Virus record (IMG/VR): IMGVR_UViG_3300010389_000162 | Coordinates: 1 to 21,437 of that record | Direction: 5' to 3' (one strand) | Length of the DNA stretch: 21,437 nt | DNA from: a virus | In this document: positions 5,364 to 18,629 of the stretch, piece by piece | Layout of the letters: every line of letters starts with the position of its first letter | How positions within the stretch are numbered: position 1 is the first letter of the stretch | Translations under genes and position numbers: made by a program | The notes under the pieces: model-generated | Seen by the model: the letters and a program-made list of their open reading frames with translations, nothing else | Told to the model about the DNA's origin: nothing | Database searches by the model: none

Positions 5364-5396
5364 TACTTTCTCCTATTTTTGTTTATTTTCAACAAG

Positions 5397-5526
5397 GTAA
5401 CATCTTGAAGATTATGATTTCTTGCCTTTTTTTTAAAAAATGTAACATCTTAAAGATTATGATTTCTTGCTTTTTTTTTAAAATGTAACATCTTAAAGAT
5501 TATGATTTTTTGCCTTTTTCTAAAAT
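5397..5526. repeat. Three tandem 42-45-bp repeats overlapping the 3' end of the 77-aa gene
   Basis: Copies lie at 5397-5441, 5442-5484 and 5485-5526, directly abutting. Each contains GTAACATCTTRAAGATTATG (plus strand), then TTTYTTGC and a T-run/A-run. The copy at 5485-5526 includes the last codons and stop of the 77-aa gene; the other two look like duplicates of that gene end, still preserving the Lys-Lys-Ser-stop coding. Each copy has a small ATCTT-A/G-AAGAT dyad. They fill the gap before the long-fibre gene. Confidence 0.85.
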
Positions 5527-6181: not shown

Positions 6182-8965
6182 CTATATAATAAACCAAGAA
6201 GTTCCGTCAGAAACTACTGTAATTGCCTCGTAAGCAACAGTTATGGGAAGTGGGTTTGCATCTCTATCAACACCGTCAAGGAGTTGACCACTAATAGTTT
6301 TAATATTTATTGTGTTTCCAACGTCTACTTTTTTAATCGTAATTTCCTTACCACTAGCTGTAGACGAAGGCAGCGTAATAGTTACATCTGAACCGCCATT
6401 TGTAACCAAAATAATGTCTTCTGTTGTTTGAACAGAATGATCTGCAATAACATTTACTACATTTTTTGGAGCAACAGTAGGAATAACGCTAACAGCAATA
6501 TCGTTATTATTTTGTATTAAGCTAACTCCAAAGCCAGCAGTTAATCTTCTAAATTGAAGTTGATTGCCAACTGTCTGCTTAAATACATCTGCTGTAGATA
6601 CTGGACCTAAATTAATGCCAGTAGCACCTGCGCCTGCGCCAGAACCGCCAGCACCGCTATCTTTAAATGCAAACTCAAGATCCTCACCAACATCCATTGG
6701 AAATTTAATCTGAATTTGAGTGCTTTGATCCCCATTAGCCCCAACTTCTTCATAATCAGCATTAGCACCAGCACATAATAAATGACCGTTTCTAAATACT
6801 TCTAGGGTCTTAGAGCCAACTTCATAATCTACCTGTATATTTTGATCTTGAGAATTTAAAGGAAGTGTAATAACGGTATCTGTAGCTACTGGACCCTGAA
6901 TCTCATTTGATGTCGCTGGAAAAGTAGAGACAACAGCCATTTTTTCACGATATGGCTTTGTATCCAATGACTTCAAAATTTCGCATATTTTTTCATCAAG
7001 TCTTTTTGCAGCTCTTGTTAGGTTTTCATTATCTACCAATGCGCAGTTTTCTTTACCAACACCCTCTTGAGTAACTGTAATAGCAAGTCCTGCAAGATCT
7101 ACGTTTACAGCATTGTCGGTCTCACCGACCTGAGAGTTTGTGATAACTAATGATCCGTCTAAATTATCTACAACATTAAAATAACCCAAGCCACTAATGA
7201 CAGATGCGAAGGCAGAGGCTACTTGGGTAGGATTTTCAGAACCAGAAAGTGTAACTTCTTGCATTACTCTTCCAGGTATTTGTGGATTACCTCCACCGCT
7301 ATTTACATTTGCCCAAAACGAATATTTATTCAAATTTGAGGCAGAGTTCATATTAAAAGCTTGACCAGTAGTAATACCAGAGGCTGGTCCAAAGAATAAA
7401 GTAGTTATTTCTGGAATGTAATTTGTTATAGAGTTTGTAAAATCTGGAGTAGTATCGGTTTCAGCAGGAGAGCCAATATAAGATAAAACCTGACCTGTAG
7501 TATTATCTGATACCTGTCTAGATTCACCTTGCTCAATTTCTCCACCAGAAGCACCTCGCATAAACACTTTGGCTACCGAACTTCCTTTGTCAGCCCTTAA
7601 AAATAACCAATAAGTATCAGCATCAAAGGGAACATCCTTTCTGTCTGCTACTTTCATATGTCTGTTTGTAGTAGGAGTGGGAACTGTTGAATAAGATCCA
7701 ATAGCATACTGAGCTTCTGTACCCACAGAACCTGTAGATACCTCTTGATAAAGCTCTGTTAAGGTAACTTGAGATGCCGTATCTACACTAGCAATTTGAT
7801 AATAAAGTGTATCATTAGCTGTTTTAACCTTAATCCAATCTTCAGCCAATACATCATTGGTCCAAGAAACACCACCAACTGACTCCACAACATTTGAGTT
7901 ATTTGTGAATATAAGTTTTGGAGCAATATCTACTCCACGAACAATCTCAATGTAGGCTACTTGGTTATCAGCAAGTGTAATATCTGTGCTCGTTTCGTTT
8001 GCGGCTATTTTATAACTAAGTCGAGAACCAACAAAATCCAAATAAAAATCTGCATCCCAATTCATTTGACCTGGAAAGTCAGCAGCATGAGAAATTGTGC
8101 CTGAACCTGTTATCTGCGTGTGTGCAAGATCAGATCTTAGGCTTGTAATTGATCCAGCAGGATTAGCAGAATACCAATAAGTCGTACCCTTAATTTGCTT
8201 AATTTCTGTCTTTAGTGCATCATCATTATCTTTAAAAGTAAAGATCTGCTTATCTCCACCTCTAAAAGGAGAAGTGGTTGTAGAAGACTTATAAAAATTC
8301 TCATCTCTACCTTCTGAGTGATTATCCCATTGAAATTCAGCAAATGGATCTGGAGTATTTGAGCCAGCAGTACCTAATCTAAAAAGCATAGGTCTGCGAT
8401 CCTCAATACTTATTACATTATTATTAGCGTCTGTTTCAACAATAGCAATCGGTAGTACATTAGATGCAAAAAGGGAAGACGATACTACGATTTTAAAGTC
8501 AAAAGTAAGGGCTAGTGGAAGGTTTTTAGTAATCTCAACTTTAGAAGTTGGATTCCATAAATATACTTGAGATGCTGTATCATCGTCTACTTGTCTAGTA
8601 AACTCTAAACCAATGTAATTTAAGGCACTTGGAGTAAATGCACCTTCAACCCTTTCGTTTGTAGTGGAGTTAATTACTTGATTATCCTCTCCTGAAGGTA
8701 CTACAAAGAACGTACCTGACTCGTCAGATTTTCCATGAAACATAGCAGATTCTTCTACTATCATCTCTAGACCAGATGCAGCACCGCCAATTGCACCTGA
8801 CATATTTAATTCCCATCCACGAATTACATAAGATTGATCTTCGCCAAGTACGAAGGATTTAAGTAACTCATCGAAATCATTACGAACTGCAGATTCTATA
8901 GAGCGTAAATGGGGAGTATCTACCCTCTGTTGATTCGTCCAATTTTGAGATCTTCTTACCGCCAT
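6182..8965 (-). CDS. Baseplate-proximal fibre / structural protein (927 aa)
   Basis: A large multidomain virion protein and the first gene of the left structural block. The N-terminal ~200 residues contain 'VIRGWELNM', 'LNYIGLEFTRQVDDDT' and 'NNVISIEDRRPML', which resemble N-termini of baseplate-attached fibre proteins. Residues ~565-635 form a beta module that includes 'GRVMQEVTLSG' and 'DGSLVITNS'. Residues ~710-770 carry an 'LEVFRNGHLL..G.DYEEVG' domain also seen in the 122-aa protein. A Gly-rich linker follows (771-783). The C-terminal ~93 residues ('VTITLPSSTASGKEITIKK', then 'YEAITVVSDGTSWFII') match a common phage fibre C-terminal beta domain. AGGA lies seven bases before ATG, with an extended -10 promoter upstream. 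It is probably a fibre or a baseplate-to-fibre linker. Confidence 0.75.
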   Translation of the reverse strand: MAVRRSQNWTNQQRVDTPHLRSIESAVRNDFDELLKSFVLGEDQSYVIRGWELNMSGAIGGAASGLEMIVEESAMFHGKSDESGTFFVVPSGEDNQVINSTTNERVEGAFTPSALNYIGLEFTRQVDDDTASQVYLWNPTSKVEITKNLPLALTFDFKIVVSSSLFASNVLPIAIVETDANNNVISIEDRRPMLFRLGTAGSNTPDPFAEFQWDNHSEGRDENFYKSSTTTSPFRGGDKQIFTFKDNDDALKTEIKQIKGTTYWYSANPAGSITSLRSDLAHTQITGSGTISHAADFPGQMNWDADFYLDFVGSRLSYKIAANETSTDITLADNQVAYIEIVRGVDIAPKLIFTNNSNVVESVGGVSWTNDVLAEDWIKVKTANDTLYYQIASVDTASQVTLTELYQEVSTGSVGTEAQYAIGSYSTVPTPTTNRHMKVADRKDVPFDADTYWLFLRADKGSSVAKVFMRGASGGEIEQGESRQVSDNTTGQVLSYIGSPAETDTTPDFTNSITNYIPEITTLFFGPASGITTGQAFNMNSASNLNKYSFWANVNSGGGNPQIPGRVMQEVTLSGSENPTQVASAFASVISGLGYFNVVDNLDGSLVITNSQVGETDNAVNVDLAGLAITVTQEGVGKENCALVDNENLTRAAKRLDEKICEILKSLDTKPYREKMAVVSTFPATSNEIQGPVATDTVITLPLNSQDQNIQVDYEVGSKTLEVFRNGHLLCAGANADYEEVGANGDQSTQIQIKFPMDVGEDLEFAFKDSGAGGSGAGAGATGINLGPVSTADVFKQTVGNQLQFRRLTAGFGVSLIQNNNDIAVSVIPTVAPKNVVNVIADHSVQTTEDIILVTNGGSDVTITLPSSTASGKEITIKKVDVGNTINIKTISGQLLDGVDRDANPLPITVAYEAITVVSDGTSWFII

Positions 8966-8990
8966 TGATATTTCCTATAATTTATTGCCC

Positions 8991-8999
8991 ATTATACCA
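8991..8999 (-). promoter_or_regulatory. Putative extended -10 promoter (TGG-TATAAT) for the left structural block
   Basis: On the minus strand TGG (8999-8997) followed by TATAAT (8996-8991) matches the extended -10 consensus exactly. A start near 8985 would leave a ~20-base leader carrying AGGA before the ATG at 8965. No good -35 is seen, as is common for extended -10 promoters. It lies in the divergent gap facing the plus-strand cassette and would restart transcription of the fibre genes. Confidence 0.55.
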
Positions 9000-9087
9000 T
9001 AATTTCATATACTAGGAAGTTTGGAGGGTGTTTGAGATTGCATCTACTTATTAAAGATTATTATTTTGTTGTATTATACTTAAATAG

Positions 9088-9096
9088 TGGTATTAT
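9088..9096 (+). promoter_or_regulatory. Putative extended -10 promoter (TGG-TATTAT) for the small-gene cassette
   Basis: AGTGGTATTAT at 9086-9096 gives TGG-TATTAT, the same pattern as upstream of the 122-aa gene but on the plus strand. A weak TTGTTG lies 19 bases upstream. A start near 9103 would leave a very short leader beginning at the GGAG Shine-Dalgarno, so an upstream alternative (TATTATACT near 9072-9080) is also possible. Confidence 0.35.
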
Positions 9097-9115
9097 TATT
9101 ATGGAGATTATAGCT

Positions 9116-9451
9116 ATGAACTATGGTGGTAGTAAATTCAAGGGGTTACGAGATAAGGAAAGAAAAGTGAATTATTCTAATGACAGAAAGACAGATGAAG
9201 AGAAATTATTAGAAGAATTTGAGAAAATGCTAGAACAAGAAGATTTTGGTACTTTTGATCCAGATTTCAACTATCCTGTATTTCCAGATAGTTCAGATTT
9301 GGAATATCCAGAAGAGCCACCCCCAATACCTAAAAAGGCTAAAAAAGAAAAAGATGGATGTAAACATGAAAAAACTAAAAAGGTTTACTATACGCAAAAT
9401 AAAGCTTACATAATGTGCTTAAAATGTAAGGCTGATCTAGGAGATGCATGA
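9116..9451 (+). CDS. Small acidic protein with C-terminal CxH/CxxC zinc-ribbon-like motif (111 aa)
   Basis: First gene of the opposite-strand cassette. I place the start at the ATG at 9116 because GGAG lies nine bases upstream; a longer reading frame opens with a TTG at 9032 but lacks ribosome-binding support. The protein has a charged helical segment (about 24-43), an acidic and proline-rich middle ('EYPEEPPPIPKKAKK') and a C-terminal putative metal site with Cys82, His84, Cys101 and Cys104. It is soluble, with no signal peptide. The zinc site is inferred from residue spacing; the function is unknown. The stop overlaps the start of the lipoprotein gene (ATGATGA), implying translational coupling. 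Confidence 0.7.
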   Translation: MNYGGSKFKGLRDKERKVNYSNDRKTDEEKLLEEFEKMLEQEDFGTFDPDFNYPVFPDSSDLEYPEEPPPIPKKAKKEKDGCKHEKTKKVYYTQNKAYIMCLKCKADLGDA

Positions 9452-9708
9452 TGAAATTTATTTTACCCTTAGCTTTATTTTTGGTGGGATGTGCTATCCC
9501 CACCATTAAGACAAATAAACCAAAAAAACTCAATTACACAGAACGTATGCAGATTAAGATACAAAGCTGCATATCTAGACTAAATAATGAGGGATTTGAT
9601 CAACAGTTAATTTACCCAATTTGTAAGGATATTTATGAGCGAAAAACAAGAATTAAGCGTTTTAAAAGAAGAGGACGGCTGGAAACTCCTAGAAGAACGA
9701 ACATTTAA
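9451..9708 (+). CDS. Small phage lipoprotein with two conserved-type cysteines (85 aa)
   Basis: The N-terminus 'MKFILPLALFLVGC' is a lipoprotein signal peptide with an LVGC lipobox. The residue after Cys is Ala, compatible with outer-membrane sorting in a Gram-negative host. The mature part has 'ERMQIKIQSCISRLNNEGF' and 'ICKDIYERK', two further Cys spaced as in small phage lipoproteins of unknown function, and ends in a strongly basic tail. AGGAG (9439-9443) is seven bases before this ATG; an adjacent ATG at 9448 is a one-codon-longer alternative. The last 74 bases overlap the next gene in another frame. It could be an outer-membrane spanin or an envelope-modifying moron product, but no matching inner-membrane spanin partner is evident. 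Confidence 0.75.
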   Translation: MKFILPLALFLVGCAIPTIKTNKPKKLNYTERMQIKIQSCISRLNNEGFDQQLIYPICKDIYERKTRIKRFKRRGRLETPRRTNI

Positions 9709-9937
9709 CGACAGATCAATAATTTGCTGGTACAATGGTGATGACGGTATTATCAGTCTAATGCTGTTTCATTTAACCGACCAGCCAAATGAACTTAGTA
9801 AAAAATCTCCATATACAACTTGGGGATATCTGACATATGCTGTATCTGGGATGTACACCTGCGAAGAGGCTGCTAAAGTAGTTAGCCTATATTTACAGGA
9901 TATGGAAAATGGCTTATATTGGTGGGAAAATGTTTAA
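9635..9937 (+). CDS. Soluble hypothetical protein (100 aa)
   Basis: I do not recognise this protein. It is mixed alpha/beta in appearance and Trp/Tyr-rich ('IICWYNGDDGIISLMLFHL', 'YTTWGYLTYAVSG', 'MENGLYWWENV'), with no signal peptide or membrane segment. The start is credible because AAGGA lies five bases before the ATG, even though the gene begins inside the lipoprotein gene and overlaps it by 74 bases. Its end overlaps the start of the following small membrane-protein gene by eight bases. This dense overlap suggests co-translation within the cassette. Function unknown. Confidence 0.65.
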   Translation: MSEKQELSVLKEEDGWKLLEERTFNDRSIICWYNGDDGIISLMLFHLTDQPNELSKKSPYTTWGYLTYAVSGMYTCEEAAKVVSLYLQDMENGLYWWENV

Positions 9938-10082
9938 GCAACACTTATTTGTAAATATTATGATGTTAATGCAGTGCGGAGCAATATATACATATTTAAG
10001 TCAGAAAAACTGGGGGTTAGCCGTATATTGGCTTTGTTGTTTAGGTATTAATTTTGTGGTAACTTATGTATTGGGTAAATAA
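9930..10082 (+). CDS. Small membrane peptide with two hydrophobic helices (50 aa)
   Basis: An ATG at 9930 opens 50 codons ending TAA at 10080-10082. GGTGGGAAA directly before it can act as ribosome-binding site. The product has two hydrophobic stretches, about 6-24 ('LFVNIMMLMQCGAIYTYL') and 29-48 ('GLAVYWLCCLGINFVVTYVL'), joined by a polar SQKNW loop, giving a hairpin membrane topology. Size and topology are compatible with a holin or exclusion-type peptide, but there is no family evidence. Its stop overlaps the next start as TAATG. Confidence 0.6.
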   Translation: MFKQHLFVNIMMLMQCGAIYTYLSQKNWGLAVYWLCCLGINFVVTYVLGK

Positions 10083-10261
10083 TGGAAGAAGATAATAAGC
10101 CAGAAGAATATTTTAGAATTAAGACAGTTAGGTACACTGATCCTGACAAAATGACCCCATATCAAAAATGGAGAGTTGTACTTGGTATTGTACAGATAAT
10201 AGCTACATTAGGTGTACCGTTTGTAATTGTAGCAATAAATGAATATTTAAAAATACGATAA
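10082..10261 (+). CDS. Small protein with a C-terminal membrane helix (59 aa)
   Basis: It begins at the ATG of a TAATG overlap with the preceding small gene and runs 59 codons to TAA at 10259-10261. The first ~30 residues are charged and polar ('MEEDNKPEEYFRIK'), followed by one clear hydrophobic helix at about 32-52 ('VVLGIVQIIATLGVPFVIVA') and a short 'NEYLKIR' tail. This is a cytoplasmic domain anchored in the inner membrane. Translation is probably by re-initiation from the upstream gene, since no independent Shine-Dalgarno is obvious. Function unknown; it is one of at least four cassette products predicted to touch a membrane. Confidence 0.6.
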   Translation: MEEDNKPEEYFRIKTVRYTDPDKMTPYQKWRVVLGIVQIIATLGVPFVIVAINEYLKIR

Positions 10262-10269
10262 TACATATT

Positions 10270-10515
10270 ATGAAACTTAAATTAAATCCACATAAATATT
10301 ACATGCCAGAACCAAAGGTTTTTAAAGAACCTAGTAAGTCTGCGCCTCACTTTCACGGTAGGTCTGCACTTTGGTGGATCTTGTGTCATCACGGATTATG
10401 GCACATAATTAAGTGGATAGTGATAGATTATTTCAAACACTATCGACCAAATAAGGAAGAATACCAGAAGGTAAACAAGGAGTATAGAAAATGGATGGAA
10501 TCTTTGAAACGATAG
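10270..10515 (+). CDS. His/Trp-rich, probably membrane-associated protein (81 aa)
   Basis: Not recognised. The protein contains seven His and five Trp in 81 residues, concentrated in 'FHGRSALWWILCHHGLWHII' and the following KWIVIDYFKHY. This stretch (about 31-54) is hydrophobic enough to associate with or cross a membrane, and its paired His could bind metal or protonate. The flanks are Lys-rich and basic, and the C-terminus is a charged helix. The ATG lies eight bases after the previous stop; its Shine-Dalgarno is weak, suggesting coupling. The unusual composition makes it one of the more distinctive products of the cassette. Confidence 0.6.
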   Translation: MKLKLNPHKYYMPEPKVFKEPSKSAPHFHGRSALWWILCHHGLWHIIKWIVIDYFKHYRPNKEEYQKVNKEYRKWMESLKR

Positions 10516-10592
10516 GTATAATTTTATTTATATTACTACCGACTATTGTAAGTCTAACTATTAGCTCATATCTAACTGATTATAAGGAATAA
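10491..10592 (+). CDS. Tiny single-helix membrane peptide (33 aa)
   Basis: This frame is short but has strong ribosome-binding support: AAGGAG at 10477-10482, eight bases before the ATG. It overlaps the end of the 81-aa gene by 25 bases and overlaps the end of the convergent 141-aa gene by 32 bases. The peptide is almost entirely one hydrophobic helix (about 7-27, 'TIGIILFILLPTIVSLTISS') with a short charged tail. It resembles small phage membrane peptides in form only; function unknown. Confidence 0.55.
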   Translation: MDGIFETIGIILFILLPTIVSLTISSYLTDYKE

Positions 10593-10986
10593 TACCTTTA
10601 AAGCTAAAGCTAACTGTAGCTACACCTTTGGCATTAACGGAAAATCTCTCATTAGTAACTTTCATTTGAGGAAGCCAAAAAATATCTTTATCTGAGTGTC
10701 TATCTTTAATTCTAAGGGAAGTATATGGATGATAAAGTATCTCATTAATTTTAGTTCTAATATCGTGACCTTGCAATCCACCTTTTAATTTAACAGATAC
10801 GCCAGATATTTGACCTTGAACAGCTATTCTAGTTACAGCTATTTCTTGTGGATATACAGAATCAATGCCGTATATCTCTTGCTCGCCATAATCAATAGTG
10901 TAGTTAATAGATTGAACTTCAGGGTATTCGTTACCTGAAATAAACAATCTACAATCTGCACCTCTTAAAACTATTGATTGAGCCAT
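10561..10986 (-). CDS. Tail-tube-like structural protein (141 aa)
   Basis: Last gene of the right structural block. The beta-rich sequence opens with 'LRGADCRLFISGNEYPEVQS', followed by an IDYGEQEIYGID stretch and a 'GQISGVSVKLKGGLQGHD' stretch. This resembles the layout of contractile-tail tube proteins of the XkdM type (a RLF.xG.E opening, then a Gly-rich strand pair), so a tube or tube-initiator/baseplate-cap role is plausible. The similarity is by eye and distant. The start has AAGGAT five bases before ATG and follows the upstream stop after one base, indicating coupled translation. The 3' end overlaps the convergent 33-aa plus-strand gene. Confidence 0.6.
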   Translation of the reverse strand: MAQSIVLRGADCRLFISGNEYPEVQSINYTIDYGEQEIYGIDSVYPQEIAVTRIAVQGQISGVSVKLKGGLQGHDIRTKINEILYHPYTSLRIKDRHSDKDIFWLPQMKVTNERFSVNAKGVATVSFSFKGIIPYNQLDMS

Positions 10987-10987
10987 A

Positions 10988-12643
10988 TTAAATCCTTGTA
11001 TTTATATCGTCATCATCGAACAAGTTACCGTCATCTGGATCTTCTCCCCAAACATAGTATCTCTCACTTGTTCTAAATCTACCCCACTTTGCCAACCCCT
11101 CATCCCCAGGATAGAGAATTACTACATTTAGTACGATACCTGTAGCCCTAACAAGATCAATAAGATCTTCAGCATACACACGACCAGAAACCATGTCTGT
11201 AACATAAAAAGGAAAATCACTTGCATCTTGTGCTACATCATATGCAAAATTTTGGGTAATTAAGGATATATTAGTTCCAGGTTCGTGAATCTGTTCAAAT
11301 TGATAGGCTGGGTTAATTAAGATTGTATTGTCAGACAGTCTAGCGATATAGGGCACTGGACCCTCCTCTTTACTAGTACCTAAACCAAATACCAAAAAGC
11401 CTTCTTCATCTGGTATCTCAGATGCATCGTCAACATTAATAATTCTTTCTGTACTAGAGTCAACCGTTATTGTGTTTTGACATTCTTCTTGACCAACAAC
11501 AAAAGACTTAGATAAATCAAATGTATATGGTCCTAAATTATCTTCTGTAGATGCTCCAGATTCTACTATATGAGCAGCACCTTGCCTATCTCTTCTAACA
11601 ACCTTTGTTGTAGCTGGAATAAATACTTCTAATAACTGAGATTCAGTTTGAAAAGCCGCAGCAAATGTTTTCTTAGAGTTAATTAACGCTCGCTTAGGGT
11701 TAAAGAACAATACGCCTTCTAAGTCAGCTTGAATTGTAGTTTCATTAAAACCATTTATATTTTCATATTCAACATATGCTTCACCAACTAATCCACCACG
11801 AACTTCTGTAATAGTAAACGTACCCTTATTATCATCTACGAATGCATCGCCATATAAATTAAGGTAATCACCCTTTTTTACACGACCTACAGTTGGATTT
11901 GGTCCACCAGTCCAAATAAGCCTAACAGCACCAGATGGTTGAACTTCCACAGTCCACTGAGTTGTAGTCTCTGCAGTAGTTTGTCTGATTTCAGGAAATT
12001 TAAGTTCATTTTGAGCACGACCACCAAGAACTCTAACTGTAGAAGATGGACCGTTTGAACTAGATAAAATATTTACAAATCCACCAGCACCATCATCACC
12101 AGCAAAAGCAGATCCTGTTCTACCAGCAGATCTTAAACCCCTGATAATTGCGTCAGATACCTCTTGGGCTGTAGCTGCGTTTATATTTGCAAATTGACCT
12201 GTACTGAAGGTAATCGTAACAGGCTCCTCACCGTCAAACTCCAGTATAAGTGTATCACCATCTTCTAATTGGTATGGCTCTAACTCTGTAGATCTAAAAA
12301 TAGACCTAACAAATTCAACACCATACATTGTTTCTAAAATTTTGTGGATTAAATCCCTAACTTGCTTTCTATTGACTACTTCAATACCAAGTCTACGAAA
12401 CACCTCATCAGACAAACCAACATTGTCTGGTCTAATAACATCTCTATCGGCAAGTAGTGCATCTAGATACCTTTCTCTGGCAGTTGTGATATAGAGCATA
12501 TCATTAACAGCGCACACATTATCAATCAGATGGCAGGAACCTGTTGCAAGGGCTTCTAAGATAGTGTTAGTATTCTCACCCCTAATACTAGGGTTTAGAT
12601 ACTGCCTTAATCTTTCTTTTTCTTTATCTAAATCCGTAGCCAC
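10988..12643 (-). CDS. Baseplate-associated structural protein sharing modules with the J-like protein (551 aa)
   Basis: Probably a baseplate or tail-end protein, placed directly after the J-like gene. The helical N-terminus (1-115) includes 'TTARERYLDALLADRDVIRP', similar in style to baseplate wedge proteins. Residues ~128-205 are a beta module. Residues ~228-283 contain 'VKKGDYLNLYGDAF' and 'NKGTFTITEV', a module repeated in the J-like protein. Residues ~404-463 ('DASEIPDEEGFLVFGLGTS', 'GPVPYIA') match another J-like module (residues ~120-182 there). The tail ends in an acidic FDDDD run. The start codon is GTG, overlapping the J stop as TAGTG, with AAGG seven bases upstream; this is strong translational coupling. 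No recognised enzyme domain. Confidence 0.65.
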   Translation of the reverse strand: MATDLDKEKERLRQYLNPSIRGENTNTILEALATGSCHLIDNVCAVNDMLYITTARERYLDALLADRDVIRPDNVGLSDEVFRRLGIEVVNRKQVRDLIHKILETMYGVEFVRSIFRSTELEPYQLEDGDTLILEFDGEEPVTITFSTGQFANINAATAQEVSDAIIRGLRSAGRTGSAFAGDDGAGGFVNILSSSNGPSSTVRVLGGRAQNELKFPEIRQTTAETTTQWTVEVQPSGAVRLIWTGGPNPTVGRVKKGDYLNLYGDAFVDDNKGTFTITEVRGGLVGEAYVEYENINGFNETTIQADLEGVLFFNPKRALINSKKTFAAAFQTESQLLEVFIPATTKVVRRDRQGAAHIVESGASTEDNLGPYTFDLSKSFVVGQEECQNTITVDSSTERIINVDDASEIPDEEGFLVFGLGTSKEEGPVPYIARLSDNTILINPAYQFEQIHEPGTNISLITQNFAYDVAQDASDFPFYVTDMVSGRVYAEDLIDLVRATGIVLNVVILYPGDEGLAKWGRFRTSERYYVWGEDPDDGNLFDDDDINTRI

Positions 12644-18607: not shown

Positions 18608-18619
18608 TTAATATATTAA
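18608..18619. repeat. 12-bp perfect palindrome next to the J-like gene ribosome-binding site
   Basis: TTAATATATTAA is a perfect dyad touching the AAGGAG Shine-Dalgarno of the J-like gene and just downstream of a promoter-like element. It may be an operator, but in AT-rich DNA such a site can arise by chance. Confidence 0.35.
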
Positions 18620-18629
18620 AGATTGTTTT

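What the first reader, a model, noticed from the sequence alone, without database searches (positions are those of the whole stretch)
9116..10592. Opposite-strand cassette of seven tiny, overlapping, envelope-oriented genes inside the tail operon
Between two leftward structural blocks lie seven small rightward genes linked by overlaps (ATGATGA, a 74-base overlap, an 8-base overlap, TAATG, a 25-base overlap). Products include a lipoprotein, at least three membrane peptides, a His/Trp-rich protein and a CxH/CxxC protein. The strand, gene size and dense packing are those of a moron-like accessory unit; an envelope target (lysis, superinfection exclusion or anti-defence) is inferred. No recognisable holin, endolysin or spanin pair is present, so this may be a new small-protein system.
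Basis: partly seen in the sequence, partly recalled or inferred. Interest (0 to 1): 0.65.

Follow-up and report, generated by a model that had tools for sequence, protein, structure and literature searches.

The report
Swappable small-gene cassette in phage tails
Seven tiny genes running backwards inside a phage's tail gene block are real, and they sit in a slot where related phages carry different sets of small genes or none, so they are probably optional tools against the host or rival phages and not parts of the virus particle.

Summary
In detail: seven + strand ORFs cover 99.5% of 9116-10592 (0 of 2000 shuffles; best 51%) at the stated overlaps. P1-P4 and P7 have relatives under purifying selection; P5 and P6 are orphans. 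The cassette fills a variable slot between two conserved structural genes (141-aa tail-type gene; 927-aa gene) in a family of large myophages distantly related to Myxococcus phage Mx1. Of 29 representatives, 6 (Mx1 included) are empty; the other 23 carry antisense genes in differing combinations. A remote clade has other cargo there: exonuclease, SLT transglycosylase, lipoprotein metalloprotease, Vsr-like nuclease. The leader has divergent extended -10 promoters (TGGTATWAT on the cassette strand in 10 of 15 leaders; 0.21 expected). P1 is a fusion of two families that relatives keep apart. 'Moron-like accessory unit' is supported. 'Lysis' is disfavoured: two large records (153-155 kb) with an empty slot lack P3 and P4 anywhere. 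Best mechanism: early/middle, non-virion host-manipulation genes with envelope members, most likely superinfection exclusion; function is inferred, not shown. As a locus it is a new member of a known kind, made of undescribed small-protein families.

The parts
8966..9115 (.). Divergent leader: extended -10 TGGTATTAT for the cassette (9088-9096, +) and TGGTATAAT for the 927-aa gene (8999-8991, -); TTAAAGATT box from 9051 (+), i.e. AATCTTTAA pointing at the - strand gene
9116..9451 (+). P1, 111 aa, CxH...CxxC DLGD zinc-ribbon-like C-terminus; fusion of the N-terminus of family P1a ('YGGSKFxGLRDKERK') with family P1b, separate genes in relatives
9448..9708 (+). P2, 85-86 aa lipoprotein (lipobox LVGC) with two further conserved Cys; relatives in L005, L006, L054
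9635..9937 (+). P3, 100 aa, soluble, Trp-rich; core family of the slot; confident model (pLDDT 90.9), beta sheet plus C-terminal helix; no significant match in sequence or fold
9930..10082 (+). P4, 50 aa, two hydrophobic segments, strongly conserved (61-82% identity)
10082..10261 (+). P5, 59 aa, polar N-terminus plus C-terminal membrane segment; orphan
10270..10515 (+). P6, 81 aa, basic, His/Trp-rich, no clear membrane segment; orphan
10491..10592 (+). P7, 33 aa membrane peptide, last gene; runs into the 3' end of the opposite gene, as its relatives do
10561..10986 (-). Conserved 141-aa tail/virion-type protein, boundary of the slot
6182..8965 (-). 927-aa structural-type protein, other boundary of the slot

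Best explanation
A modular accessory cassette occupies a fixed slot between two conserved structural genes of large contractile-tailed phages distantly related to Mx1. It is transcribed antisense to the structural block from its own host-type (extended -10) promoter, divergent from that of the 927-aa gene, so it probably belongs to an early or middle class and its products are not virion parts. Cargo is gained, lost, fused and reassorted between related phages. The likeliest job is manipulation of the infected host: P2 (lipoprotein) with small membrane peptides P4, P5 and P7 acting at the envelope, most likely to block adsorption or DNA entry of rival phages, and soluble P1 and P3 acting in the cytoplasm. 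Shown: the slot, cargo turnover, selection, absence of P3/P4 from large empty-slot records. Inferred: timing, localisation, exclusion function (about 0.35 for exclusion taken alone; about 0.9 for the accessory slot taken alone).
For: Slot and turnover: 23 of 29 representatives hold antisense genes, 6 are empty, including isolate Mx1 with 27 bp between the two genes. Cargo always opposite to the tail genes. P3 found only at this slot in 18 loci, and absent from the rest of the large records G001, G003, G004; P4 absent from G001-G004. Remote clade carries exonuclease, SLT, M10-like lipoprotein protease, Vsr-like nuclease there. Promoters: 10 of 15 leaders against 0.21 expected. Purifying selection. 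Small phage lipoproteins and early exclusion: T5 Llp (PMC9586334).
Against: No protein matches a known exclusion or anti-defence family. Promoter class rests on motif conservation, not transcripts. P3, the most widespread gene, is not an envelope protein. No terminator was found at the cassette end. A link between P2, P4 and P3 as one function is weak: P2+P4 occur without P3 in L006 and L054, and P3 without either in L012, L016, L031, L035, L040, L042.
Confidence: 0.6

Rival explanations
1. A lysis or lysis-control cassette: P4/P7 as holin or antiholin, P2 as an outer-membrane spanin-like lipoprotein.
For: Small membrane peptides and a lipoprotein; the same slot carries an SLT transglycosylase in L024 and L058; in Mx1 a GH19 endolysin lies just downstream of the 927-aa homologue; in L055 a P4 relative lies in another opposite-strand cluster with a signal-plus-coiled-coil-like protein.
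Against: No endolysin, holin or i-spanin-like protein in the cassette. Empty-slot records of 153-155 kb lack P3 and P4 anywhere yet must lyse. G001 keeps an SLT gene elsewhere. P4 is far more conserved than holins usually are (general knowledge).
Confidence: 0.15
2. An anti-defence or host-takeover island: P3 and P1 inhibit cytoplasmic defence or host processes, and the membrane proteins counter membrane-acting defence.
For: P3 is the core gene, small, soluble, acidic; variable fixed-site loci of short ORFs in other phages hold anti-CRISPRs (PMC4378225); a nuclease and an exonuclease occur in the slot in the remote clade.
Against: No PADLOC or fold match beyond background; no defence system tested; the host is unknown.
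Confidence: 0.3
3. Chaperone, assembly or decoration genes for the neighbouring tail proteins.
For: Position inside the tail block.
Against: Opposite strand, separate promoter, absent in relatives that keep the same tail genes, several membrane-type products.
Confidence: 0.05

Closest known systems
Phage morons / regions of genomic plasticity holding short accessory ORFs (for example in Pseudomonas Mu-like phages, PMC4378225)
   Same: Fixed inter-genic site in a conserved genome, zero to several short ORFs, own promoter, each phage with its own set
   Different: Multi-gene overlapping cassette antisense to tail genes, in large phages whose lifestyle was not tested here; no terminator seen; the small-protein families are undescribed in the libraries searched
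T5 Llp / T1 Cor superinfection-exclusion lipoproteins (PMC9586334)
   Same: Very small phage-encoded lipoprotein next to tail genes, probably expressed apart from late genes
   Different: P2 has no sequence match to any phage record, has two conserved extra Cys, and neighbours other small membrane genes; target unknown
Myxococcus phage Mx1 (OR576727, PMC10720576)
   Same: Same order of baseplate J, 141-aa and 927-aa type genes (33% and 38% identity)
   Different: Slot empty; different lineage, 55.5% GC
YkuJ and PARP WGR domain folds (P3 only)
   Same: Similar small alpha/beta arrangement, VIA Z 6.6 (rmsd 2.9, 72 aligned) and 6.2 (rmsd 4.2, 75 aligned)
   Different: Z below 8 may mean only a common arrangement; no sequence support

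Membership tests
Moron | Inserted between two genes that are adjacent in related phages | tested here: met
   Six empty-slot relatives including Mx1
Moron | Own transcription promoter | tested here: met
   Conserved extended -10 on the cassette strand; predicted only
Moron | Own terminator | tested here: inconclusive
   Scan finds one + strand site inside the cassette (10019) and none at its end
Moron | Usually a single coding region | tested here: not met
   Seven overlapping ORFs; hence 'moron-like', not filed as a moron
Moron | Base composition differs from neighbours | tested here: inconclusive
   Cassette genes 27-38% GC against 37.4% for late genes
Moron | Expressed from a repressed prophage | not testable with these tools
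   No lysogen or transcript data
Llp/Cor superinfection-exclusion lipoproteins | Short lipoprotein with lipobox | tested here: met
   P2 signal with LVGC, conserved G14-C15
Llp/Cor superinfection-exclusion lipoproteins | Sequence similarity to Llp or Cor | tested here: not met
   tblastn of P2 against 50,697 phage records gives no match at E<=1; profile finds no PDB chain at E<=10
Llp/Cor superinfection-exclusion lipoproteins | Blocks the phage receptor | not testable with these tools
   Needs an infection assay
Lysis cassette | Endolysin with holin and spanins | tested here: not met
   No match for any of the seven proteins in Pfam, PHROGs or NCBIfam
WGR domain (P3) | Sequence or fold match to WGR | tested here: inconclusive
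   VIA Z 6.2 to PARP1, tied with YkuJ; no Pfam hit

The most novel reading that the evidence does not exclude
P2, P3 and P4, with interchangeable partners, form a previously undescribed phage exclusion or anti-defence module that circulates through one dedicated antisense slot in a widespread, almost uncultured family of Mx1-related phages.
Probability: 0.3. Interest if true: 0.6.

Novelty: new member of a known kind. Interest (0 to 1): 0.38.

Why it matters
It marks a dedicated cargo slot in a large, nearly uncultured phage family. Because cargo is swapped while the flanks stay put, the two flanking genes can be used as bait to collect new small phage proteins systematically, including candidates for exclusion and anti-defence, and Mx1 offers a cultivable relative with an empty slot.

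Tried and rejected
DNA search of the cassette in annotated phages: nothing. Single-sequence searches for P5 and P6, and for the 927-aa protein in viral contigs: nothing. P3 fold: no Foldseek match at E<=0.001 in PDB or viral models; VIA matches are within background; WGR idea not supported by sequence. Weak antibody light-chain profile hits to P3 rejected as spurious. P2 model too poor for a search (pLDDT 65.5). Reading the TTAAAGATT box as a cassette activator site: tempting because it lies about 18 or 28 bases before the -10, but box plus -10 occurs only once in eight records, and the box recurs genome-wide as RYAATCTTTAA just before starts of genes on the other strand, so it more likely belongs to those genes. 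Endolysin family searches in relatives: amidase_2 and phage lysozyme gave no match; GH19 and GH108 uninformative because controls did not ring. Host: one Bdellovibrionales and one Saprospiraceae MAG contig plus Mx1; binning is too weak to name a host. A phylum-wide genome search failed on its input and was not repeated. No Rfam match in the window.

Full report
Observation. The seven ORFs are present as described. In 2000 dinucleotide-preserving shuffles, + strand ATG ORFs of at least 33 aa covered 13% on average and 51% at most, against 99.5% observed; 7 or more ORFs appeared in one shuffle. The - strand of the same stretch has 23% coverage.

Context. The window is a linear 21,437-base virus record of structural genes on the - strand: baseplate J-type (1984 aa), baseplate-type (911 aa), tail-fibre-like (1069 aa), a cement-type protein and others. 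The cassette lies between a 141-aa conserved tail/virion-type gene (10561-10986) and a 927-aa gene (6182-8965).

Relatives. The 141-aa protein finds 26 loci in IMG/VR and, among annotated phages, only Myxococcus phage Mx1 (33% identity; the 927-aa gene 38% over its N-terminus), a contractile-tailed phage of 169,621 bp (PMC10720576). In Mx1 the two genes are 27 bp apart: an empty slot. Among 29 representatives placed on a tree, 6 are empty (L003, L008, L010, L018, L023, Mx1) and 23 have genes in the slot on the strand opposite to the tail genes (L015 is cut by its contig end). The commonest full version is P1a-Px-P1b-P3-P4-P7 (L009, L013, L019, L020); reduced versions hold P3 with Px (L012, L042), P3 alone (L016), or Px alone (L002, L004); P2-bearing versions are L005, L006, L054 and the window. 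L005 has an in-frame stop in P3. Empty and filled states are intermixed on the tree, so gain and loss have recurred, although many internal branches are weakly supported.

Mosaicism. P1 of the window joins the N-terminus of family P1a (NYGGSKFxGLRDKERK, as in L006) to family P1b, which are separate genes with Px between them in relatives. A deletion from P1a to P1b is the simplest reading. P1 is closest to L006 (64%), whereas P3 is closest to L013-type sequences (71%), and the window groups with the L009/L013 clade by flanking genes.

Selection. Pairwise pN is below pS in all pairs for P1b (21), P3 (55), P4 (45), P2 (6) and P1a (6), 13 of 15 for P7 and 43 of 45 for Px. For closest pairs dN/dS is about 0.06 (P3), 0.07 (P4), 0.11 (P7), 0.18 (P1b). 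Many synonymous distances are saturated, so these are indications and not rates.

Remote clade. In L024, L025, L026, L057 and L058 the slot holds other antisense cargo: an RNase_T-type exonuclease, an SLT transglycosylase, a coiled-coil Cys-rich protein, an M10-like lipoprotein protease (L058) and a Vsr-like nuclease (L057). The slot therefore carries unrelated cargo in different lineages.

Expression. In 15 cassette leaders the strict extended -10 TGGTATWAT occurs on the cassette strand in 10 and on the opposite strand, towards the 927-aa gene, in 8, against 0.21 expected for each; L009, L012, L019 and L020 have degenerate forms, and in L005 the motif lies just inside the ORF start used there. 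A generic -35/-10 scan is uninformative. A second motif, RYAATCTTTAA, occurs in all eight relatives searched (48 sites against 2 for the reversed control) and in most of 31 stretches examined lies within about 55 bases upstream of a gene start, pointing at it. At the cassette leader it points at the 927-aa gene. I read it as a candidate phage late promoter or leader signal; this is inference.

Proteins. P3 gives a confident model (pLDDT 90.9), a beta sheet with a C-terminal helix, but no significant fold or sequence relative. P2 is a lipoprotein with two conserved extra Cys; its model is poor. P4 and P7 are small membrane peptides; P5 has a C-terminal membrane segment; P6 is basic and not clearly membrane-bound. 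None has a family match at a meaningful E-value in Pfam, PHROGs, PADLOC or NCBIfam.

Function. Lysis is disfavoured because 153-155 kb records with an empty slot lack P3 and P4 anywhere, although they may be incomplete. Structural roles are disfavoured by strand, promoter and dispensability. What remains is host manipulation: exclusion at the envelope (P2 with P4/P5/P7) and/or anti-defence by soluble P1/P3. I put superinfection exclusion first for the envelope members by analogy with T5 Llp (PMC9586334), and note that this is analogy, since the membership test by sequence failed.

Verdict. A real, conserved, modular accessory cassette in a fixed slot; moron-like but multi-gene; function inferred. 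The locus type is known in other phages (PMC4378225); the small-protein families and this slot were not found described in the libraries searched.

Noticed in passing
window 5364-5500: Two exact copies and a third degenerate copy of a roughly 43-base unit carrying ATAATCTTTAAGATGTTACATTTT lie upstream of the 1069-aa tail-fibre-like gene; same RYAATCTTTAA motif as elsewhere in the family.
   Followed up: partly
window 18610-18625; G001-G003, G008 records (L063-L093): RYAATCTTTAA recurs upstream of structural genes, often 4-55 bases before the start codon and sometimes with almost no leader: candidate late promoter of Mx1-related phages.
   Followed up: partly
L013:3710-3806 (- strand): A 97-base tRNA-like gene with a four-base anticodon call (atga) sits in the cassette leader.
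   Followed up: no
L035:8409-9209 and 10738-11427; L012:13920-14588; L054:8569-9336: GIY-YIG-like homing endonuclease ORFs (by eye) inserted beside the same structural genes in several relatives.
   Followed up: no
L055:3375-6015: A P4 relative in a different 54-kb phage contig, again in an opposite-strand cluster of small genes next to tail genes, with a phosphoesterase and a signal-plus-coiled-coil-like protein.
   Followed up: partly
L005:3737-4057: P3 interrupted by an in-frame stop: decay or sequencing error.
   Followed up: no
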